Shown here piece after piece: positions 3-11,415 of a stretch of DNA of 25,181 nt; position 1 is the first letter of the stretch, and each line of letters starts with the position of its first letter. Location of the stretch: positions 1 through 25,181 of IMG/VR virus record IMGVR_UViG_3300009181_000309; one strand, written 5' to 3'. Origin of the DNA: a virus. Below the pieces are notes generated by a model. The model did not search any database, was not told the origin of the DNA, and saw only the letters and a list, made by a program, of their open reading frames with translations. The position numbers were made by a program, and so were the translations under genes.

Positions 3-1082
3 ATTACAAAGACAGTTTCTAATAAAGCTCTTACTTCGAACGTTGCAACCATTACAACCTCAGCCACACACGGATTTGCCGTTAATGATTACGTAGTTGT
101 ATCTGGTGTAGATGCCACATTTAATGGCACATATCTAGTTGCATCAGTTCCAACAACTACAACATTCACATATGCAAAGACAGCAACAAACGTAACTTCA
201 GCGGTAGCGACAGGCTCAGCAGTAGTTTCAACAAAGCGTAGATTCGGCGGAATTGTTCGTGATGCTTCCGATGGAACAATTAAAATATTTGAGGATGCTA
301 TTACAAAACCAACTTCGACAGTTAACTTTGCAGAAGCAGGTCTTGTGTATGGAGATCTCCAGGTAGGACCCTTAACGGCAACATCTGCTACATTTACATC
401 AGCCACAATTGGCGATGTATCAAATACAGAGCTACAGTATCTAAATAACGTAAGCTCAAATATTCAGACACAGTTAGATGCTAAATTAGCTTCAGCGACG
501 GCGGCAACAACTTATGCCCCTATTGCTTCTCCAACATTAACTGGAACACCATTATCAACAACAGCGGCGGTAGACACAAATACAACTCAAATTGCTACGA
601 CAGCCTATGTAGTTGGGCAGGGATATTTGAAGTCAACTACAGCATCTTCAACATATGCCCCATTAACAGCAGCATCACTTGTTCGTCCAGTTTTAACATC
701 AGCATTTGAAACTGTAACAGCTTCTGCTACAGCAGCTACTGGTACAGTTAACGTAGACATTTCAACATCTGCAGTTAAGTACTATACTGCAAACTCATCC
801 GCAAACTGGACATTTAATTTTCGTGGTGATGGATCAACAACATTAAACTCACTTTTATCAAGTGGTCAATCAGCAACGGTAGCATTTTTAGTAACAAATG
901 GAGGAACAGCATATTATCCAACAGCCTTTCAAGTTGATGGAGTTGCTGTAACTCCAAAATGGCAAGGTGGAACAGCCCCAACATCAGGCAATGCCTCTTC
1001 AATCGATTCATATACATTTACAATAATTAAAACCGCATCAGCGACATATACAGTTATTGCTTCACAGACTAAATTTGCATAA
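3..1082 (+). CDS. Modular tail fibre protein, C-terminal 359 residues (5' end outside window)
   Basis: The frame is open from base 3, with no credible start, so the gene begins upstream of the window. The visible protein has three parts. A beta-rich module (about residues 5-75, containing VDATFNGT and TTTTFTYAK) recurs in the fibres at 4186 and 9910. A linker follows with RDASDG and a TNTEL/IQTQLDAK-type segment, often seen in fibres of marine and freshwater phages. The C-terminal domain (about 245-359, with TVAFLVTNGG and PKWQGGTAPTSG) also ends the 4186 fibre. It is probably a virion surface fibre that binds or presents receptor-binding domains; this is inferred from composition and repeats, not from a recognised catalytic motif. 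The TAA stop overlaps the AAGGAGG ribosome binding site of the next gene, so the two are probably translationally coupled. Confidence 0.85.
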   Translation: MTKTVSNKALTSNVATITTSATHGFAVNDYVVVSGVDATFNGTYLVASVPTTTTFTYAKTATNVTSAVATGSAVVSTKRRFGGIVRDASDGTIKIFEDAITKPTSTVNFAEAGLVYGDLQVGPLTATSATFTSATIGDVSNTELQYLNNVSSNIQTQLDAKLASATAATTYAPIASPTLTGTPLSTTAAVDTNTTQIATTAYVVGQGYLKSTTASSTYAPLTAASLVRPVLTSAFETVTASATAATGTVNVDISTSAVKYYTANSSANWTFNFRGDGSTTLNSLLSSGQSATVAFLVTNGGTAYYPTAFQVDGVAVTPKWQGGTAPTSGNASSIDSYTFTIIKTASATYTVIASQTKFA

Positions 1083-1092
1083 GGAGGCTTAA

Positions 1093-3228
1093 ATGCCATT
1101 ACTGGAAACTAGAGCTTCAGGGTCTGCTATATCATACGGACTAAATGCACTCAGTAATTTCTTTGACCCGTTTTTTAAATATGTATCATTAGCTTTAAGA
1201 GGCAATGGAACAAATGCTGCAACTAATAATACATTTATAGAATCTTCAAATTCAGTACAAATGACAAAAAATGGAAACGCAACTCAGGGATCATTTTCTC
1301 CATTTTTAGATGCGTATTCTGTATATTATGATGGGGCTTCCTACACACAAGTTGCACAAAATACCGCATTTCAATTTGGCACAGGCCAATTTACTATTGA
1401 GTATTGGGTAAACGTACCAAGAGACGTAAATATTCAAGGCTATTGGACAGCAATGACCTCAGTAGGTGGCGTAGGGTATAGCCAAAAGGGAATTGCAATA
1501 TATATACTAGACTCAGCTGGCACTATTGGTGGAATAGCAGTCGATATGAATAATGCTAGTGGCGGACTTAGACTTATGGATACCGTAGATATTAGAGGAA
1601 CTGGTTGGCGTCATATAGCACTAACAAGAGATGCATCTAATGTTGTTAGATTATTTTTAGATGGACAGCTTCGTCAATCGGGTACTAGTACTTTAAATAT
1701 TGATGGTTCAGGAACTTACGGCGCAGTCATAGGAATTAGTGATAGTGCATCAGCTAACTACTTTAAAGGTAATATCGCTGATTATAGAATTGTTAAAGGC
1801 ACTGCCGTATACACGTCCGAGTTTAATCCACCAAATACAAAATTAACAGCAATTTCTGGAACATCTTTCCTTGCTAATAGAACAAATAGATACTCAAAAG
1901 ACGAATCAACAAATAATTTAACTATATTTGTTGGGGGAGGAACACCAAGAGTAGTCTCTGAAACTCCATACTCAAAAGATATTTACACAACAGATACAAA
2001 GGGTGGATCCCTGTCATTTGATGGTACTGGAGACAGAATACAAATTTTTGACGGAGTAACTACAAATCCCACAGCCACTTCTTGGTTACATGCTTCTGGG
2101 TCAAAAACAGGAACTGTAGAGACATGGGTATATTTAAAAAGTCATGCTACATCATCAACTGGATATATGCACAGATCTTTCTGGAATAAAGGTAACACTT
2201 TTATGAATCTTGGAGTTCGTGAAACTGGAAAGTTTAGATTTTATTGGTATGACGGAACAAGCCAAAATTGGATAGATTCTAATAGCACAATACTTTTAAA
2301 TGAGTGGAATCATTTAGCGGCAGTTTTAAATGGATCTGCAGTAACTTTATACGTTAACGGAGTTAACTCTGGAGTAACAAGATTTGTTAACGGTGGTCAG
2401 GTGGCAACTAATGGTGCATACAATGGAATTACAGACAGCTCTAACTTTGCTCAAGGAGATCAATTTCATATAGGTGGTGGGCCAGATGGCGTTGAAGCAC
2501 AAAATTCCTGGCATGGATATATTTCAAATTTGAGATTTGTTCCTGGAACACAGGTATATACAGGAAGCTTTACACCTCCATCTGCCCCATTAACAGCAAT
2601 TTCTGGTACCACTCTATTATTTAAAGGCGAGAATGCAAAAATTATAGATCAGTCAGGCAATACACCAATTGAGACATATGGTAATGCACAACTACAAACA
2701 TCTATTACTAAATTTGGTTTATCTTCTATGTACTTTAACGGATCTGGAGATGCTTTAATATCTCACAATAATCCATTACAGTCTATAGGAACGGGCGATT
2801 TTACAGTTGAAGGTTGGTTCTATCCCTCAACATGGGCAGTAGAAGCAATGTATAGAAGACTTTGGGCTTCAGGTCTAAGCACTGCTAATGATATGTCTTT
2901 GAATATTTTTACCGATGGAAAAATTCAATATCGAAATAATGATACAGTATTAATTACCTCAACAAATTCTGTTGCTACTAACACATGGCATCATATTGCA
3001 GTAGTTCGGTCATCTGGAGTAACTACTATATGGATAAATGGTGTTTCTAATGGAACTACATCAACAAATAATAATTTAACTAGCCCAAACTCATATCCAC
3101 TTTATATAGGAAACCACCCAGCATTAATTGCAACATGGAGTGGATACATAGATGATTTTAGGGTAACAAGATTTGCAAGATATACCTCAGCATTTGCAGC
3201 TCCTGCTAGAGAAATTGAGGCTCAGTAA
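1093..3228 (+). CDS. Three-domain concanavalin/LamG-type adhesin
   Basis: A 711-residue protein with three LamG/concanavalin A-like beta-sandwich domains at roughly residues 76-240, 306-500 and 544-700. Each opens with a S(L/M/V)xF(D/N)GxGD-like strand, continues with an (F)TxExW(V/F) strand and has a W..HIAV.R-type strand (WRHIALTRD, WNHLAAVLNG, WHHIAVVRSS). Each ends in a G.I.(N/D)(L/F)R(F/V) strand followed by Y(T)S.F. The linkers between domains repeat LTAISGT. Such domains bind carbohydrate or other surface ligands, so the protein is a likely receptor-binding or virion decoration protein. The start is fixed by AAGGAGG 5 nt upstream of the ATG. The N-terminus, MPLLETRASG, loosely resembles the MP..(N)STR leader of the adhesins at 6376-8421. 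The last base of the stop is the first base of the next ATG. No signal peptide or membrane segment is seen. Confidence 0.88.
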   Translation: MPLLETRASGSAISYGLNALSNFFDPFFKYVSLALRGNGTNAATNNTFIESSNSVQMTKNGNATQGSFSPFLDAYSVYYDGASYTQVAQNTAFQFGTGQFTIEYWVNVPRDVNIQGYWTAMTSVGGVGYSQKGIAIYILDSAGTIGGIAVDMNNASGGLRLMDTVDIRGTGWRHIALTRDASNVVRLFLDGQLRQSGTSTLNIDGSGTYGAVIGISDSASANYFKGNIADYRIVKGTAVYTSEFNPPNTKLTAISGTSFLANRTNRYSKDESTNNLTIFVGGGTPRVVSETPYSKDIYTTDTKGGSLSFDGTGDRIQIFDGVTTNPTATSWLHASGSKTGTVETWVYLKSHATSSTGYMHRSFWNKGNTFMNLGVRETGKFRFYWYDGTSQNWIDSNSTILLNEWNHLAAVLNGSAVTLYVNGVNSGVTRFVNGGQVATNGAYNGITDSSNFAQGDQFHIGGGPDGVEAQNSWHGYISNLRFVPGTQVYTGSFTPPSAPLTAISGTTLLFKGENAKIIDQSGNTPIETYGNAQLQTSITKFGLSSMYFNGSGDALISHNNPLQSIGTGDFTVEGWFYPSTWAVEAMYRRLWASGLSTANDMSLNIFTDGKIQYRNNDTVLITSTNSVATNTWHHIAVVRSSGVTTIWINGVSNGTTSTNNNLTSPNSYPLYIGNHPALIATWSGYIDDFRVTRFARYTSAFAAPAREIEAQ

Positions 3229-3935: not shown

Positions 3936-4186
3936 TGGCAACAATATCTAACCCAAATGAGGTCTCAGACCTCAGCTTTGCAAATAGCACATTTTATGGA
4001 TTTAAGATTATTGCTGATACAGGCAAGTTCTACGTTCATGTAATAAATGACGGGTCAACCGTAGAATTACCCGTGGATGACGTACTAAAAGATAATCAGT
4101 ATAGAACTTGGATTTGGACCAAAAATACTGTACAATTTAGTTGGGACGGCACAAAAAAGACACACCTTAAGATGGAGATAAAATAA
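3935..4186 (+). CDS. Small protein of unknown function in fibre operon
   Basis: An 83-residue protein, predominantly beta, with several aromatic residues (FYGFKII, FYVHVI, YRTWIWTKN, VQFSWDG). I do not recognise a family. It is coupled on both sides by one-base TAATG overlaps (with 3621-3935 and 4186-6366), so it is probably made in step with the large fibre that follows. A fibre accessory or small structural protein is the obvious guess, but nothing in the sequence proves it. An intact frame, tight packing and ordinary codon use support it as a real gene. Confidence 0.75.
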   Translation: MATISNPNEVSDLSFANSTFYGFKIIADTGKFYVHVINDGSTVELPVDDVLKDNQYRTWIWTKNTVQFSWDGTKKTHLKMEIK

Positions 4187-6366
4187 TGACACAAATTATA
4201 GATTTAGGCAAACTTAGATTTCACTGGGCAGACTCATGGAGTTCTTCCACAGAATACGAATTAAACGACGTAGTCAAATACGGTGGAAACGCATACGTTT
4301 ACACAAACGCAGTAGCTACAACTAGCAACCTCCCAACTAACACCACATATTGGAAAACAATGGTGGAAGGAATTAACTTCTTAGGTGTATATTCATCTGG
4401 CACAGCATATAAGCCAGGAGACTCAGTAACACATGGTGCAAATCTTTACCTTGCAGAAAATCCTACAACTGGAAATACCCCACCAAATGCTACATATTGG
4501 TCAAAGCTTGCAAGTGGTATTCAATACGAAGGTACATACAGCGCATCTGTAAATTATCAGAAAGATGACATTGTATCTTACGGCGGAAGCGTATATATTG
4601 CTCTTTCAGATTTTATAAACTACTTACCAACTAATGCAACCTATTGGGCAAAATTAGTAGACGGTACATATCCAGCACAAGCTGGCTTAACAAATTATAT
4701 TTTAAAGACAGATGGTACAAACGTATCATGGACAAATGCCCCAACATTAGATGATGCAACAATTGCTGACGATTTAATTGTAGGAGGAACAACATATGCT
4801 GGAAATAACGCAGATGACTTTGATGCGGCGGCAGTATTAACTGGAGCACGAGCAGTATTTGATATGGACTCATCTCCATATGGACAGGTTGCAATACACA
4901 ACTCAAACACAACATCTTCAACCGATGTTATTGCATATGCCGCAAATGGTGTAGATGCCTCTGGTTGGATTGATATGGGTATTACTGGACAAGACTTTAA
5001 TCAGGCAACATATGGAATTACGGGCCCAAATGATGGCTACATCTTTATGCAAGCCCCAGAAAAATTTACAGAATCTGTAACAAATAAAGCACTTACAAGC
5101 AATGTTGCAACGTTAACAGTTGGAACAAATGACTTTAGAGTAGGCATGCCAGTAGTTGTTACTGGAGTAGACGCTACATTTAACGGAACTTATACAATTA
5201 CAGCAGTTACTGCAACTACATTTAGCTATGCAAAAACTGCCTCAAATGTTTCTTCAATAGCAGTATCTCCTCCAGGAACAGCAGTCGCTGGTAAAACAGG
5301 AGCAGGTAATTTAGTTCTTGCAACTGGCGCAAACGGTACAGAGAATAAGATTGTATTTGCAGCAGGTGGTTATGATTCTGGCAGTACTCAAATGGAAATT
5401 GTTCCAAATAGCAAAGTTTCTATTAACATCCCAACAGCCTCAACATCTTCTACAACAGGAGCACTTGTTGTAAATGGAGGAGTTGGAATTGCGGGATCAG
5501 TTAATATTGCTGGTAACACAACAATTACAGGTAACTTAACATTCGGAGGAGGATCAACAACTACAGCAAATCTTGCAGTTTCTGATCCGCTTATTTTTGT
5601 TGGAAATGCAGCAACAGGAGACACTAATGATCTTGGTATTATTCAAGAATATCGGACTGGCGGAGCAACTAAGTATTCTGGTGTAACTCGTGACGCAACA
5701 GATGGAGTTACTAAATTCTTCAGCGGTGCTTCAACTAAACCAGTTTCAACAGTTAACTTTTCAGAAGCTGGACTTGTATATTCAAGTATTAAAACAGGAG
5801 CAGTTGATGCGGCAGCAATTACTGGTTCTGGAAACCTTACAATTGCAACAGATAAACTAGTTGTAAACTCATCAACTGGAGCAGTAACTATGGCAGGTGC
5901 GCTAGGCGTATCTGGTCTACTTACTGCAAATAGTGGAATAACTTCATCTGGGTCATTAACATTCTCAGGAGGAGCATCATTTAGCGGAACTACAGATGTT
6001 CAAGAACTTCGTGAACAAGTTGTAGACGTAACACTATCTACAAATGCTGGAACACTTGATTGGACAGCAGGTAACATTTATTATGTTGCTACTGCACCAA
6101 CTGGTAATATGACATTTAATGCAACAAATGTTCCAACTGATAATTCAAAAATTATGACTATCAACGTATTTGTTACACAAGGTTCTACTGGATATATTCC
6201 AGGAACATTCCAAATTGGTGGAGCATCACAAACAATTCGCTGGGCAGGTGGGTCTGCTCCAACAGCAACATCATCAGCAGGAAAGATTGACGTATTTTCA
6301 TTCACAATGCAGAGAACTTCTGCAGGTGCATGGCTTGTGTACGCTACTTCATCACTTAACTTCTAA
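4186..6366 (+). CDS. Modular tail fibre with N-terminal carbohydrate-binding-type repeats
   Basis: A 726-residue protein with a clear modular layout. Three repeats of about 45 residues lie at about 14-59, 66-108 and 115-158. They share the pattern W/Y..(S)..Y..(N/G)D.V.(Y/H)G...Y and end in LPTN.TYW.K, like chitin/cellulose-binding (CBM 5/12) modules. A region shared with the 9910 fibre follows (IDMGIT, DGYIFM, NLVLATG, ENKIVFAAGG, SDPLIFVGN). The VDATFNGT beta module sits at about 295-365. The C-terminal domain (about 615-726) is shared with the fibre at the left edge of the window. This is probably a long trimeric fibre with sugar-binding capacity; the trimer is inference. The gene is coupled to the previous one by TAATG, and its stop overlaps the ribosome binding site of the next gene. 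Confidence 0.85.
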   Translation: MTQIIDLGKLRFHWADSWSSSTEYELNDVVKYGGNAYVYTNAVATTSNLPTNTTYWKTMVEGINFLGVYSSGTAYKPGDSVTHGANLYLAENPTTGNTPPNATYWSKLASGIQYEGTYSASVNYQKDDIVSYGGSVYIALSDFINYLPTNATYWAKLVDGTYPAQAGLTNYILKTDGTNVSWTNAPTLDDATIADDLIVGGTTYAGNNADDFDAAAVLTGARAVFDMDSSPYGQVAIHNSNTTSSTDVIAYAANGVDASGWIDMGITGQDFNQATYGITGPNDGYIFMQAPEKFTESVTNKALTSNVATLTVGTNDFRVGMPVVVTGVDATFNGTYTITAVTATTFSYAKTASNVSSIAVSPPGTAVAGKTGAGNLVLATGANGTENKIVFAAGGYDSGSTQMEIVPNSKVSINIPTASTSSTTGALVVNGGVGIAGSVNIAGNTTITGNLTFGGGSTTTANLAVSDPLIFVGNAATGDTNDLGIIQEYRTGGATKYSGVTRDATDGVTKFFSGASTKPVSTVNFSEAGLVYSSIKTGAVDAAAITGSGNLTIATDKLVVNSSTGAVTMAGALGVSGLLTANSGITSSGSLTFSGGASFSGTTDVQELREQVVDVTLSTNAGTLDWTAGNIYYVATAPTGNMTFNATNVPTDNSKIMTINVFVTQGSTGYIPGTFQIGGASQTIRWAGGSAPTATSSAGKIDVFSFTMQRTSAGAWLVYATSSLNF
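5065..5290 (+). repeat. Inserted VDATFNGT beta module (copy 2 of 3)
   Basis: This codes for about 70 residues containing TNKALTSNVATLT, TGVDATFNGTYTIT and TTFSYAKTA. Copies 1 and 3 lie at about 3-228 and 10722-10965. Here the module sits between DGYIFM and GNLVLATG, a junction that is uninterrupted in the 9910 fibre. Confidence 0.75.
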
Positions 6367-6375
6367 GGAGGCCAA

Positions 6376-7524
6376 ATGCCTGTAATAAACAGCACAAGAG
6401 GCGTCTTTGGTTCACAATCATCACTTCTTGCCATTGGTGGCGACTCGACATTTGAAGTATTTTTATTTGGTGCAGGTGGTGGATCAGGTTCATCTAATAG
6501 AGTTAATAGCGCATATAGAACCGCTAATTATTATAGAACAAAAGAAGGTGGCGCAGGGGGAGTTGTTTTTGCTTCATATAAAATAAAAAAAGGAACATCT
6601 ATTGGATTTTCAATAGGTGGTGGTGGTCGTGGCGGAGGGCAGCAAGGCAATCCTTCAGATGCTTCTGGTGGATACAACGGTGGTGGATCAGGAACTTATG
6701 GTACATGGGATATGTCAGCTGGCGGAGGAGGATACACTTGTATTTTTGCATCTTCTATAGGAAAAAATCAAAATGGAATTATTTCTTTAGCACCTGGCGG
6801 CGGCGGAGGCGGAGGTGGACCAGGGTATCCAGCAGATTTTAAAGGACAAGCAAACGGTGGTGGTGGAATAACTACAAACGGAGTTGGAAATAACGGTGCA
6901 CGACAAATGGGATACTTCAGTGCACTTGCTGGCGGAGGAGGACTAACTGCAGGTGGAGTTGGTGGCGATGCATTGCCTGCAGCACCAACTGGAGGAGATG
7001 GACAATCGGGTTCTGCTTTAACAGGAGCTAATGCTTATCATTGGAGAAATGCTTGGGGCGGCGGAGGCGGAGGTGGAGCAGGATGGTTTGGCGGTGGTTC
7101 TGGAGCTAACGATGGAGATTCATGGGACGGAGGCGGAGGTGGAGCGGGATCCGCATTTGTTAGAGGATCTGGTCTTTCATACAATGCTGCTGGATTAACA
7201 GCAATATCTGGTGTGTCATATACAACTCATACATTTTATACTCAGACATTTGGAACTTATGGAGATGGATCAAACCCTTTATACGGAGGAGGAAGTCTAG
7301 AAATGGGTGGTCCTGCTGTTTTAAATAGTATGCGTATGCCAGTTGAAACAACTAATCCAATTTATCCAGGAAATACAGTTGGGTACGGTGGTATATTTAA
7401 TAATGGTGGAACAAATGCCTACCTAGGTAATGATGGAAGGCCAGGAGCAATAGTTTATAGAATTAATGGTGGTGCATGGACAACTGTTTCTTACAGTGGT
7501 TCAGACACAACACTATCACTTTAG
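6376..7524 (+). CDS. Glycine-rich adhesin with shared N-terminal leader
   Basis: A 382-residue protein. The leader MPVINSTRGVFGSQ is shared, with changes, by the next two genes. A body with many GGGGGG runs alternating with short hydrophobic strands follows. It has the composition of phage adhesins built on polyglycine II helices, such as the tip adhesins of T4-like phages (established for phage S16 gp38), with aromatic-rich loops that could contact receptor. The start is set by AAGGAGG 4 nt before the ATG, and the preceding TAA overlaps that site. The position directly after a long fibre gene resembles the gp37-gp38 pairing of fibre and tip adhesin, which is analogy rather than proof. The GGN-rich DNA creates reverse-strand open frames that I regard as artefacts. 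Confidence 0.85.
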   Translation: MPVINSTRGVFGSQSSLLAIGGDSTFEVFLFGAGGGSGSSNRVNSAYRTANYYRTKEGGAGGVVFASYKIKKGTSIGFSIGGGGRGGGQQGNPSDASGGYNGGGSGTYGTWDMSAGGGGYTCIFASSIGKNQNGIISLAPGGGGGGGGPGYPADFKGQANGGGGITTNGVGNNGARQMGYFSALAGGGGLTAGGVGGDALPAAPTGGDGQSGSALTGANAYHWRNAWGGGGGGGAGWFGGGSGANDGDSWDGGGGGAGSAFVRGSGLSYNAAGLTAISGVSYTTHTFYTQTFGTYGDGSNPLYGGGSLEMGGPAVLNSMRMPVETTNPIYPGNTVGYGGIFNNGGTNAYLGNDGRPGAIVYRINGGAWTTVSYSGSDTTLSL

Positions 7525-7533
7525 GAGAATAAT

Positions 7534-8418
7534 ATGCCATTTGTAAATAGCACAAGAGCAATATTTGGAGCACAGGGAAGGCTTGCAAATAATCCCCCTG
7601 CAATAATTGGAACACTAGCAAATCCAGCTACAAGTGGTGTTGCATTAAAAGATGGTGGATACGCAAGTGGTGTTTATTATATTAAAACTTCTGGAATGAC
7701 AACAGCAGTACAAGCATATGTAGATAATGATTTTTCTGGCGGAGGATGGATTCTTTGTACATATGGATATGCCGCAGATACAGCTGGAGGCACTTCAAAT
7801 AGAGTTATGCCAAATATGAATCATGACGGATCATCATTTCCTTATGATAGTTCAAATAGAGCAAGTTCAAGAGGAATACTAGCAGCACCTGGTGCACAAA
7901 AATCAACATTGTTAATTGCAAAAGCATCTACAGAATGTTTAATGGCAGCTGGAGGAAATCCTTCATCTGGAGGAATTAATAATTATACTTATGCATGGAA
8001 GTTTACAATACCATCTCCATCATCACTAACTTTTGCAAATCATTCAAATTACTATAATGGATCAATGGGAATATCTACTGTTACTGTTTATGGATTAAAG
8101 GGTGAAACTGGAACATACACTGGAAAACAATTATTGACAGAATCATTAGGTACATCATGGGGAGATTCATATCCAACTGGATATGGTCCAGTAACAATAG
8201 CTAGCGATACAGTTAGATCAGGAACATGGAACTCTGGTCCACATTTTCCATCAATTCATTCTGGTTCAAGAAATAGTGGAAGAGGAGCTGCAATTTCTTC
8301 TTCACCTGACTTAGGATTTAACGGATACTTTGAAGGCGAGTCCTACTATACATACCGTGGCTGGTATACAGCGACTTCAACTGGTTATACTGGGCAAATG
8401 TCTATCTGGTTTAGATAA
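7534..8418 (+). CDS. Fibrinogen-related-domain adhesin with shared N-terminal leader
   Basis: A 294-residue protein. It opens with MPFVNSTRAIFGAQGR, the leader shared with 6376 and 8421. From about residue 35 it has SGVYYIKTSG, a strand ending in V(D)NDF, and SGGGWIL. That order matches the start of fibrinogen-related domains (GVY.I..., CDM..DGGGW). The C-terminus GQMSIWFR also fits the closing strand of such lectin-like domains. The cysteines usual in animal members are absent from this part. It is probably a sugar- or acetyl-group-binding adhesin on the virion. The ATG is preceded by TAGGAGA, which overlaps the stop of the previous gene. The fold assignment is by motif only. Confidence 0.8.
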   Translation: MPFVNSTRAIFGAQGRLANNPPAIIGTLANPATSGVALKDGGYASGVYYIKTSGMTTAVQAYVDNDFSGGGWILCTYGYAADTAGGTSNRVMPNMNHDGSSFPYDSSNRASSRGILAAPGAQKSTLLIAKASTECLMAAGGNPSSGGINNYTYAWKFTIPSPSSLTFANHSNYYNGSMGISTVTVYGLKGETGTYTGKQLLTESLGTSWGDSYPTGYGPVTIASDTVRSGTWNSGPHFPSIHSGSRNSGRGAAISSSPDLGFNGYFEGESYYTYRGWYTATSTGYTGQMSIWFR

Positions 8419-8420
8419 CC

Positions 8421-9338
8421 ATGCCGTTTGTAAATAGTGTAAGAGGATCTTTTGGTACACAAGGAAGATTTGGTTTCGGTAGTGGATTGTTATCTTCTTC
8501 AACAGGCGGAACAATAACAACATCAGGTTCATACAGAATACATACATTTTTAATTGGTCAAACAGGAACTAACTTTACTTCTTCAGGCGCAGGAACAGTT
8601 GAATATTTAATTGTTGCAGGCGCAGGCGGCGGAGGCTGGGGAGCATCTAGCTATGATGGTAATGGCGGCGGTGGAGCTGGCGGATATCTATCTGGAACAA
8701 TAAATATTTCAGGAACATCTTATGCAGTAACAGTTGGAAATTCAGGAAGTGCTGGAACAAAAAGAACTTCTGGTGATGGATTAGGTTATGGGGGAAACGG
8801 AGGGGCTTCCTCTGTATTTTCATTTACAGCATTTGGTGGTGGCGGAGGTGGGACAGATAGTTATAATAATAATTCTGGATTAACTGGTGGCAGTGGTGGC
8901 GGAGCAAGTTGCAGTGGAAGCAGTGCAAACAATCCTCAATTCTCTGGAGCAGCAGGCACTGTTGGCCAAGGAAATCGTGGAGGAAATGTTTTAATTGGCG
9001 GAGGAGGACCTGGTGGTGGAGGCTCAGGCGGTGGCGGCGCAGGATCAGTTGGTGCAGATGGGACACAAAGTGCAAATGGTGGTAACGGTGGATCTGGATT
9101 ATCAAATTCAATTTCAGGAACAGCTTTGTTCTATGCAGCAGGCGGAGGAGGAAGCAGTTGGACAAACTCTGGTGGCACTGGAGGATCTTCAATAGGTGGA
9201 TCAGGCGCCGCAAGAGTACCTGCAATAAATGGAACTGTCGGAACAAATAATAGAGGCGCAGGCGGCGGAGCAGGAACTAATGAGTATACATCTGGACAAG
9301 GTGGCACTGGTATTGTTATAATTAGATATGCGATTTAA
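8421..9338 (+). CDS. Glycine-rich adhesin with shared N-terminal leader
   Basis: A 305-residue protein. The leader MPFVNSVRGSFGTQGRFG is the third copy in a row of the shared N-terminal motif. It is followed by a strand segment (TTSGSYRIHTF), then VEYLIVAGAGGGG and a long glycine-rich body, and closes with GTGIVIIRYAI. That architecture (SGxYxxHxF strand, VEYLxVAGGGGGG, Gly-rich core, GxVIIRY end) is the common phage glycine-rich tail-fibre domain. It is probably a receptor-binding adhesin. The gap from the preceding stop is only 2 nt and there is no clear Shine-Dalgarno, so it is likely translated by coupling. The 3' end overlaps the next gene by 11 nt. Confidence 0.83.
   Translation: MPFVNSVRGSFGTQGRFGFGSGLLSSSTGGTITTSGSYRIHTFLIGQTGTNFTSSGAGTVEYLIVAGAGGGGWGASSYDGNGGGGAGGYLSGTINISGTSYAVTVGNSGSAGTKRTSGDGLGYGGNGGASSVFSFTAFGGGGGGTDSYNNNSGLTGGSGGGASCSGSSANNPQFSGAAGTVGQGNRGGNVLIGGGGPGGGGSGGGGAGSVGADGTQSANGGNGGSGLSNSISGTALFYAAGGGGSSWTNSGGTGGSSIGGSGAARVPAINGTVGTNNRGAGGGAGTNEYTSGQGGTGIVIIRYAI
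9314..9322 (+). promoter_or_regulatory. Possible extended -10 inside 3' end of 8421 gene
   Basis: TGTTATAAT lies 5 nt upstream of the ATG at 9328, close to the leaderless spacing seen elsewhere. It is also part of the codons for the conserved VIIRY strand ending glycine-rich domains, so it could be chance. Confidence 0.35.
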
Positions 9339-9708
9339 ATCAACACAAAATATATTTAAAGATTTTGGCGAAGTCTTTGAACAATCATGGATGGACTCCA
9401 ACAAAGTTGGCATGCCACCAAAAACAGAATGGGATTATTCTCGCCAACTACAAATTGAAGATGTAGATATTTGGGAAGTTATTTATGAACAAGGCGGAGC
9501 AGTAGGAGTATATGCTGCATGGTCTCCATATGCTGAATTTTATATGGTAAGAGTTGGCTGGCAAAAAGAAGCTCAAGGATATGGAGTTGAAACATATTAT
9601 GGTCCAGGGGCACAAAAACAAGTACAAAATAGAATGCGTGAAATGAGCATTCCTTTTAGCGTTAATCAAACATGGGTAGAACCAGAAGATATGTGGTTAT
9701 ATAAATAA
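9328..9708 (+). CDS. Hypothetical protein between adhesin genes
   Basis: A 126-residue protein rich in aromatic residues and unlike its glycine- and threonine-rich neighbours in composition. It has an acidic and aromatic N-terminal half (DFGEVFEQSW, VDIWEVIYEQ), a central YAEFYMVRVGW segment and a C-terminal VEPEDMWLYK. It looks like a compact globular alpha/beta protein. I do not recognise the family. It overlaps the end of the preceding adhesin by 11 nt and is followed by a leaderless promoter. A virion accessory or adhesin chaperone is conceivable from position alone. Confidence 0.8.
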   Translation: MRFKSTQNIFKDFGEVFEQSWMDSNKVGMPPKTEWDYSRQLQIEDVDIWEVIYEQGGAVGVYAAWSPYAEFYMVRVGWQKEAQGYGVETYYGPGAQKQVQNRMREMSIPFSVNQTWVEPEDMWLYK

Positions 9709-9909: not shown

Positions 9910-11415
9910 ATGGCACTTACAACAGAAATTGGTTTAGTTAAAACGGAAATAGCTTCATCGCTAGCCGCTTCTTTATATACCGCAAAAGATTTAGTATACG
10001 TAGCAAAGGCAATTGAAGCCCTAGCAAATGCTGAGACAACAACAGGTTCTTTTCAAACCGTTGGTGTAGCCTCAATTTTATATGTAGGACCAGCAGCCCA
10101 AACATTTCAAACTGCAGCGGCGCTAACTAATCCAGTAATCGTTGCACAGACATCGGCAAATAATTATGCTCAAATAGCATTTAAGAATACAAGCTCAAAC
10201 TCAAACGCTTCAACAGATTTTATTGCATACTCAAATAACGGAACAGACTCAGATGGCTATATCGATATGGGTATTACTTCATCAAGTTTTTCCGATCCAG
10301 ATTTTACTATTACAGGAGCTGGCGATGGATATATATTTATGGTCGGTGCCGCAGGCGGAGCAGATAAAGGTAACTTAGTACTTGCTACATCCGATACAGG
10401 TTCACAAAACAAAATTATTTTCGCAGCAGGCGGCTTAGCATCTGATGATACCCAAATGGTTATTACTCCAAATCAGAATGTACATATTGAAATTCCAACC
10501 CCCTCAACATCACCAACTACTGGTGCATTAACAGTTGTCGGTGGCGTAGGTATATCTGGTGATATTAATATTGCTGGTAACGTAACATTTGGCGGAGCGG
10601 GAACTACTCTTGAAACTTCAACACTAGCAGTATCAGACCCACTAATCTTTGTTGGTAACGATAACATTACAGATGCGGTAGACCTTGGCCTTGTTGCCGA
10701 GTATGCAACCACAGTATCTACTATTACAAAAGCCGTATCTAATAAGGCATTAACCTCTAATGTGGCTACTCTTACTACATCTACAACTCACGGATTTGCG
10801 GTTAACGACATTGTAGTTGTTAGTACTGTAGACGCCACATTTAATGGAACACACGTAATTACATCTGTTCCAACAACAACAACATTTACATATGTCAAAA
10901 CAGCAACTAACGTAGCTTCAACAGCTATAGCTGGTGCAACTGGCTCTGCTGTAGTAAGTCTTAAACGCAAATTTGCTGGTGCAGTAAGAGATGCATCTGA
11001 TGGAGTATTTAAGGTATTTAAAGATGCTACAACTAAGCCATCTGGCACAGTTAACTTCTCAGAAAGCGGACTGGCATTTGCAGATATGAGAGTGGCGGCA
11101 TTAACAGCATCATCTGCAACATTAACGTCTGCTGCAATCGGTTCAGTAACAAACACAGAAATTGGATATTTGAGCGGTGTTACAAGCTCCATTCAAACAC
11201 AGCTTGGAACAAAGGCTGTATATCCATCACAAACTTCTAACAGTGGTAAATACCTTACTACCGACGGAAGCGCAACATCTTGGGCAACGGTAGATGCCCT
11301 TCCAGCACAAGCAAACAACTCTGGATATTATCTAACCACAAATGGAACAGCGGCATCATGGGCAGCACTTGTCACTGATCCGAATCCACAAATATTCATG
11401 ATGATGGGAGCATAA
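9910..11415 (+). CDS. Modular tail fibre protein
   Basis: A 501-residue protein paralogous to the fibres at 3 and 4186. Its N-terminal 45 residues are alanine-rich and helical (TEIGLVKTEIASSLAAS), a possible attachment segment. A middle region matches 4186 (IDMGIT, DGYIFM, NLVLAT, QNKIIFAAGG, SPTTGALTVVGGVGISG, SDPLIFVGN). The VDATFNGT beta module follows at about 273-343, inserted after DLGLVAEY. The end has RDASDG, VTNTEIGYL and two repeats of the type (G/Y)YLTT(D/N)G.A.SWA. It lacks the C-terminal domain found on the other two fibres and ends in the hydrophobic PQIFMMMGA. It is probably a virion side or tail fibre. It has its own promoter and ribosome binding site, and a GGAG just before its stop serves the next gene. 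Confidence 0.85.
   Translation: MALTTEIGLVKTEIASSLAASLYTAKDLVYVAKAIEALANAETTTGSFQTVGVASILYVGPAAQTFQTAAALTNPVIVAQTSANNYAQIAFKNTSSNSNASTDFIAYSNNGTDSDGYIDMGITSSSFSDPDFTITGAGDGYIFMVGAAGGADKGNLVLATSDTGSQNKIIFAAGGLASDDTQMVITPNQNVHIEIPTPSTSPTTGALTVVGGVGISGDINIAGNVTFGGAGTTLETSTLAVSDPLIFVGNDNITDAVDLGLVAEYATTVSTITKAVSNKALTSNVATLTTSTTHGFAVNDIVVVSTVDATFNGTHVITSVPTTTTFTYVKTATNVASTAIAGATGSAVVSLKRKFAGAVRDASDGVFKVFKDATTKPSGTVNFSESGLAFADMRVAALTASSATLTSAAIGSVTNTEIGYLSGVTSSIQTQLGTKAVYPSQTSNSGKYLTTDGSATSWATVDALPAQANNSGYYLTTNGTAASWAALVTDPNPQIFMMMGA
10722..10965 (+). repeat. Inserted VDATFNGT beta module (copy 3 of 3)
   Basis: This codes for about 75 residues with SNKALTSNVATLT, TVDATFNGT and TTTTFTYVKTATNVAS. 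It is similar at both protein and DNA level to copy 1 at about 3-228 (shared stretches such as GCCACATTTAATGG), and is placed after DLGLVAEY rather than after DGYIFM as in copy 2. Confidence 0.75.

What the first reader, a model, noticed from the sequence alone, without database searches (positions are those of the whole stretch)
6376..8474. Shared N-terminal leader on three consecutive adhesins with unrelated bodies
MPVINSTRGVFGSQ (6376), MPFVNSTRAIFGAQGR (7534) and MPFVNSVRGSFGTQGR (8421) are near-identical, yet the bodies are glycine-rich, fibrinogen-related and glycine-rich. The DNA is also similar around the starts. The leader looks like a docking tag that lets different receptor-binding domains attach to one virion site, an exchangeable adhesin system. 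The gene at 1093 has a looser version (MPLLETRASG).
Basis: partly seen in the sequence, partly recalled or inferred. Interest (0 to 1): 0.6.

Follow-up and report, generated by a model that had tools for sequence, protein, structure and literature searches.

The report
Snap-on tags for phage tail adhesins
A group of water-dwelling bacterial viruses appears to plug interchangeable host-gripping proteins onto the tip of one tail fibre with a shared 16-residue tag, which may explain how they change hosts and offers a simple way to find such proteins in environmental DNA.

Summary
The leader is real: MPxxNSxRGxFGxQ opens three consecutive ORFs (6376, 7534, 8421), and no shuffled window reproduces it. 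It recurs on adhesin-like genes in many IMG/VR contigs with unrelated bodies. The gene before the first leader gene is a fibre ending in an uncharacterised ~110-residue 'cap' (phrog_5906). In 66 cap loci with a readable next gene, that gene starts MP in 65, 38 of them in the strict leader class. Conversely, all 29 credible leader genes found without using the cap sit behind a cap or, by available flank, in a tandem of such genes. Behind near-identical caps, leaders stay similar while bodies are swapped. The leader is selected as a peptide (median dN/dS 0.27) and is conserved, yet predicted disordered outside a well-folded Pam3/Bxb1-like body. Best reading: a docking peptide that plugs exchangeable adhesins onto the fibre tip. 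Binding is not shown; AlphaFold2 on a fused monomer did not place the leader. It works like the 'conserved peptide' docking of G7C/K1-5/KP32 phages and like gp38 on gp37 in T2/S16. New variant of a known kind.

The parts
729..1079 (+). cap domain at the C-terminus of the first fibre (ORF 3-1082)
   Evidence: profile of 11 caps, E 4e-38, ORF residues 243-358
1093..3228 (+). adhesin-like protein with three LamG-type domains right behind the first cap; looser leader MPLLETRASGSAISYG (1093-1140)
   Evidence: Laminin_G_3 E 6e-51, 3 stretches; N-terminus read directly
4186..6366 (+). tail fibre carrying the second cap; CBM_5_12-like and tail-fibre matches near its N-terminus
   Evidence: phrog_9851 tail fibre E 7e-21; CBM_5_12 E 8e-10
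6034..6363 (+). cap domain, proposed docking site for the leaders
   Evidence: phrog_5906 E 4e-12; profile E 4e-51; AlphaFold2 pLDDT about 95
6376..6423 (+). leader 1 MPVINSTRGVFGSQSS
6424..7524 (+). body 1, Gly-rich (weak ALK/LTK type)
7534..7581 (+). leader 2 MPFVNSTRAIFGAQGR
7582..8418 (+). body 2, weakly fibrinogen-like
   Evidence: phrog_1959 E 8e-13 over residues 23-78; no Pfam hit
8421..8468 (+). leader 3 MPFVNSVRGSFGTQGR; predicted disordered
   Evidence: residues 1-10 and 12-19 below pLDDT 50
8469..9338 (+). body 3, TNF-like plus Gly-rich fold like the Pam3 fibre and Bxb1 tail tip
   Evidence: Gly_rich_2 E 1e-14; Z 15.5 and 15.2
9910..11415 (+). internal control: fibre with a shaft about 71% identical to that of fibre 3-1082 but no cap; the Gly-rich genes after it (11768, 12691) carry no leader

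Best explanation
A two-part portable joint. The tail fibre ends in a cap domain. The adhesin genes that follow encode proteins whose first ~16 residues (MP-h-h-x-S-x-R-G-x-F-G-x-Q-[GS]-[RK], perhaps exposing an N-terminal proline after Met removal) are a docking peptide for that cap. The bodies behind the peptide are self-folding receptor-binding modules that recombination can swap while cap and leader are kept. In this phage one capped fibre is followed by three tagged adhesins, so three tips could share or compete for one fibre type. Shown: leader identity and reach, linkage to the cap in both directions, body swaps, peptide-level selection, leader outside the body fold in the one model made. 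Inferred: physical binding, the cap as the contact surface, trimer-on-trimer geometry, the adhesin function, several adhesins per virion.
For: Leader-first searches: of 29 credible unique leader genes, 24 lie 4-23 nt after a cap, one (L007) has no readable upstream but its copy L011 is capped, and 4 are second genes behind another adhesin. Cap-first search: in 66 loci with a readable next gene it starts MP in 65, strict class MPhxx[ST]xR in 38, with looser variants that go with cap subtypes; other ORFs there start MP in 45 of 332. Swaps: L055 and L059 have caps 98% identical but unrelated bodies; L046 versus L049 and L044, caps 82-89% and leaders 81-94% identical, bodies unrelated. Leader distance follows cap distance (0.39, p 0.001; 0.34, p 0.0015 with shaft and body controlled), body distance does not (0.06, p 0.25). 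Peptide-level selection: M1, P2, R8 fixed in 36 leaders with varying codons, dN/dS 0.27. Leader disordered outside a confident body. Same shaft without cap goes with genes without leader. Closest solved folds of the cap are mostly phage tail and spike parts, T4 gp9/gp10 and CBA120 TSP4 among them, at weak scores.
Against: AlphaFold2 on a natural read-through fusion of cap and leader left the leader at pLDDT 41-44, not placed; it was a monomer, so this is weak. Leader distance follows the shaft (0.54) even more than the cap, and kinship is not fully removed. Cap seeds were taken from leader loci, so the cap-first count is not independent for close relatives. Exceptions in cultured phages: CRP-738, Mel-JY34, P-SSM7, CRP-3. 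No experiment.
Confidence: 0.72

Rival explanations
1. The leader acts inside each adhesin, in folding, oligomerisation or chaperone recognition, and its linkage to the cap is only inherited gene order.
For: Gene order is conserved within clades; leader distance also follows body distance (0.46).
Against: The leader is kept across unrelated bodies, is disordered outside the body, and is absent from Gly-rich proteins of the same genome that do not follow a cap (11768, 12691).
Confidence: 0.12
2. The leader docks, but onto another virion part (fibre shaft, baseplate, or the small 9328-type protein), not onto the cap.
For: Leader follows shaft distance more strongly than cap distance; relatives of the small gene 9328 lie downstream in several loci; the fused model showed no cap contact.
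Against: In the window the same shaft without the cap is followed by untagged genes; capped fibres with a different N-terminus (L018) still precede a leader gene.
Confidence: 0.11
3. The leader is a DNA element: a recombination hotspot or translation-start signal that lets adhesin genes be shuffled.
For: DNA around the starts is similar in the window (31-36 of 48 nt), and bodies are clearly shuffled right after it.
Against: Codon third positions vary throughout while the peptide is fixed; median dN/dS 0.27, dS about 1.1.
Confidence: 0.05

Closest known systems
Conserved-peptide docking of secondary receptor-binding proteins on T4gp10-like domains (phages G7C, K1-5/K1E, KP32, KP34; reviewed in PMC6872550)
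   Same: A short N-terminal peptide (7-29 residues) conserved across receptor-binding proteins with swapped bodies, thought to dock on a separate adaptor or anchored fibre.
   Different: There the docking domain is near the N-terminus of the first protein or in an adaptor, and bodies are mostly tailspike enzymes; here it is the C-terminal end of a fibre, a different domain family, with non-enzymatic adhesin-like bodies.
gp38 adhesins on the gp37 tip (T2, S16, PP01; PMC12892980)
   Same: Adhesin gene directly after the fibre gene, Gly-rich receptor-binding part, N-terminus joins the fibre tip, with cognate pairing needed between N-terminus and gp37.
   Different: In PP01/T2 the exchanged N-terminal part is 113 residues and S16 gp38 has helices and a beta-helix (PMC9608196); here a ~16-residue leader, and bodies of several folds.
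Pam3 gp24 fibre, TNF-like plus Gly-rich domain (PMC9608196; PDB 7YPX)
   Same: Body 3 (8421) has this fold, Z 15.5 over 184 residues.
   Different: Pam3 gp24 docks to the baseplate by its own long N-terminal helix and uses chaperone gp25; here a short leader behind a capped fibre.
phrog_5906 (unknown function)
   Same: All 11 caps aligned match it.
   Different: No function was assigned; the link to tagged adhesins is proposed here.

Membership tests
Conserved-peptide docking on a T4gp10-like domain | Short conserved N-terminal peptide on receptor-binding proteins with diverse bodies | tested here: met
Conserved-peptide docking on a T4gp10-like domain | Partner carries a T4gp10-like domain 2/3 | tested here: inconclusive
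   No sequence match. Foldseek ranks T4 gp9 and gp10 first but at E 0.16 and 0.42; VIA Z 4.2 for gp9 and the T4 baseplate chain, 4.6 for CBA120 TSP4, top row Pa223 capsid spike 6.7: too weak to claim homology.
Conserved-peptide docking on a T4gp10-like domain | Peptide physically binds the domain | not testable with these tools
   No multimer prediction on hand; fused monomer gave no placement
gp38 tail-fibre adhesin (S16/T2 type) | Gene directly follows the fibre gene and encodes a Gly-rich protein | tested here: met
   Window 6376; many loci; ctXG6705's next gene is annotated 'tail fiber adhesin gp38'. Other bodies in the same position are not Gly-rich.
gp38 tail-fibre adhesin (S16/T2 type) | Folded N-terminal attachment domain before the Gly-rich part | tested here: not met
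   Residues 1-19 of 8421 are disordered in the model and the body fold begins at about residue 26-31
gp38 tail-fibre adhesin (S16/T2 type) | S16 gp38 fold of the receptor-binding part | tested here: inconclusive
   Not in the list for 8421; absence excludes nothing
Pam3-type Gly-rich fibre tip | TNF-like plus Gly-rich fold of the receptor-binding part | tested here: met
   For 8421 only: 7ypx_A Z 15.5, 9d93_Qb Z 15.2, next group (ALK/LTK) 8.6 and below
phrog_5906 | Profile match of the fibre C-terminal domain | tested here: met
   11 of 11 caps in A1

The most novel reading that the evidence does not exclude
A general plug-and-socket joint, used by unrelated fibres of freshwater and marine phages, lets one virion population carry several different adhesins on the same fibre type, so that host range shifts by swapping or mixing tips rather than by changing the fibre.
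Probability: 0.28. Interest if true: 0.75.

Novelty: new variant of a known kind. Interest (0 to 1): 0.52.

Why it matters
It proposes a function for an uncharacterised domain family (phrog_5906) and a sequence rule, cap followed by an MP-leader gene, that points to the probable host-recognition protein in uncultured aquatic phages, where such genes are mostly 'hypothetical'. If the joint binds as proposed, adhesin exchange and virions with several adhesins become directly testable, including in cultured cyanophages such as Syn30 and S-E7.

Tried and rejected
tblastn of a 20-residue leader against cultured phages: no match. A first degenerate DNA pattern for the own contig was mis-written and found nothing; redone. 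Cap search of bacterial and archaeal genomes: none, so no prophage context. Sequence search of PDB with the cap and with protein 7534: nothing. AlphaFold2 of the fused cap-leader chain gave no docking pose. Leader-pattern hits L002 and L005 (not at an ORF start) and L014 (MPLVNSMRSLFGPE, no cap) were set aside as chance. L074 at first seemed to lack a leader gene; its leader is there 7 nt after the cap but the ORF ends after 41 codons. The DNA-element reading was rejected on codon evidence. S16 gp38 did not appear in the fold list for 8421, which excludes nothing. Searches of the held library found no description of this leader or cap.

Full report
Observation. The three leaders stand at the starts of three complete, consecutive ORFs. 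A degenerate pattern for the leader core finds exactly these three sites in the window, against 0.04 expected. Proteins 7534 and 8421 align with each other only over about residues 1-18. The bodies are Gly-rich (6376 weak ALK/LTK type; 8421 Gly_rich_2) and, for 7534, only weakly fibrinogen-like. The window is an IMG/VR virus contig.

The leader elsewhere. DNA-pattern scans of IMG/VR with the leader alone returned leader genes in many other viral contigs, nearly all at an ATG start. A close relative of the window (L012/L022) has the same three genes; the others are more distant.

The missed partner. In the leader-first loci the gene upstream is a fibre that ends in one and the same ~110-residue domain, here called the cap. 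The window has two such capped fibres, 3-1082 and 4186-6366, each followed about 10 nt later by an adhesin-like gene. All 11 caps aligned match phrog_5906, of unknown function; there is no significant Pfam or PDB sequence match.

Reciprocal linkage. A search with cap sequences gave 67 loci. In 66 the next gene was readable (ORF of 60 aa or more, or running off the contig). It starts within -1 to +23 nt; 65 start MP, 38 of these in the strict class MPhxx[ST]xR and 27 in looser variants that go with cap subtypes, e.g. MPFISSxSARQSG after ..GSSNLGY caps and MPRRGSVGGLYAPISG after ..LANF caps; one (L080) starts MT. In the 67th, L074, the leader is present but the ORF is broken off. After removing near-duplicates 53 remain: 33 strict, 19 looser MP, 1 MT. 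Other ORFs in these loci start MP in 45 of 332 cases. Among 388 other ORFs, 14 start MP[FYIVL]..[ST]; 7 are further leader genes and 7 are relatives of the small window gene 9328. Starting from leaders, of 29 credible unique genes 24 are directly behind a cap, one (L007) is cut by the contig end but its copy L011 is capped, and 4 are second genes behind another adhesin (L015, L106, L113, L114; in L106 and L113 the start of the upstream gene is off the contig). Caveat: the cap seeds came from leader loci.

Cultured phages. Seventeen isolates or complete genomes with the cap were read, mostly Synechococcus and Prochlorococcus myoviruses, with Roseobacter CRP-3/CRP-738, Microcystis Mel-JY34, DSL-LC01 and ctXG6705. 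In 13 the very next gene starts MP, on Gly-rich, LamG/SPRY, YHYH or long bodies. Exceptions: CRP-3 (small ORF between, then MPFLASFGGGSARGF), CRP-738 (no MP, but GTLGGGSARG), P-SSM7 (MSP) and Mel-JY34. In ctXG6705 the depositors named that gene tail fibre adhesin gp38.

Swapping. L055 and L059 have caps 98% identical; L055 carries an FN3 body, L059 an unrelated one. L046 is Gly-rich while L049 and L044 are not (their starts look fibrinogen-like by eye, without a Pfam match); caps are 82-89% and leaders 81-94% identical. Over 49 pairs, leader distance follows cap distance (0.39, p 0.001; 0.34, p 0.0015 with shaft and body controlled) while body distance does not follow the cap (0.06, p 0.25). 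Leader also follows shaft (0.54) and body (0.46), so this test does not isolate the cap and does not fully remove kinship.

Peptide, not DNA. Over 36 leaders M1, P2 and R8 are fixed and G12 nearly so, while their codons vary; median dN/dS is 0.27.

Structure. Full-length 8421, modelled with 24 relatives, has a confident body and a leader at mean pLDDT 44-45 over residues 1-20, although M1, P2, R8 and G12 are invariant in that alignment. A conserved but disordered terminus is what a docking peptide should look like. The body matches the Pam3 fibre and the Bxb1 tail tip at Z about 15. The cap folds confidently; its closest solved structures are mostly phage tail and spike parts, T4 gp9, gp10 and CBA120 TSP4 among them, but at weak scores, and it matches many predicted fibre proteins of aquatic phages. 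In a natural read-through fusion of cap and leader the leader was not placed. That neither supports nor excludes docking on a trimer.

Internal control. Fibre 9910-11415 shares about 71% identity over 164 residues of shaft with fibre 3-1082 but lacks the cap, and the Gly-rich genes after it (11768, 12691) lack the leader.

Mechanism. The best-supported model is a portable joint: cap on the fibre tip, leader on the adhesin, exchangeable bodies behind it. Since the Pam3 fibre is a trimer (PMC9608196), a trimer-on-trimer joint with three leaders per tip is likely, but this is inference. It works like the conserved-peptide docking described in PMC6872550 and like gp38 on gp37 (PMC12892980). Membership in either family is not established: gp10 homology of the cap is inconclusive, and no folded gp38-type attachment domain is seen in 8421.

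Noticed in passing
window 9328-9708; L018 9147-9599; L114 (minus strand); also L028, L034, L039, L041, L076, L078, L087: A 126-150 aa protein family (M[PR]xFK[ST]TxNIxxx..NWMDS..EDVDIWE..EDMWLY) lies after the tagged adhesins in several loci, once between two of them; the window copy has no Pfam or PHROG match. Possibly an assembly factor or tail part.
   Followed up: partly
window 3228, 11768, 12691: These three starts share another motif by eye (MAISRLATS, MAISKASTS, MSIKRLSRS) on a small and two Gly-rich proteins; 11768 and 12691 also share their last ~40 residues (62% identity). Perhaps a second attachment tag.
   Followed up: no
L023, L028/L015, L032, L083, L114, L106/L113: Two tagged adhesin genes in tandem behind one capped fibre also occur in these contigs, so the three in the window are not unique.
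   Followed up: partly
L051-L054, L066, L086: In this cap subtype the fibre stop and the adhesin start overlap by one base (gap -1), suggesting coupled translation, with a different leader (MPxxxxxxxxYAPISG).
   Followed up: no
window 3-1082, 4186-6366, 9910-11415: Three fibres in one contig share long shaft segments (57-71% identity) with different ends, as if fibres themselves were built by segment duplication and exchange.
   Followed up: partly
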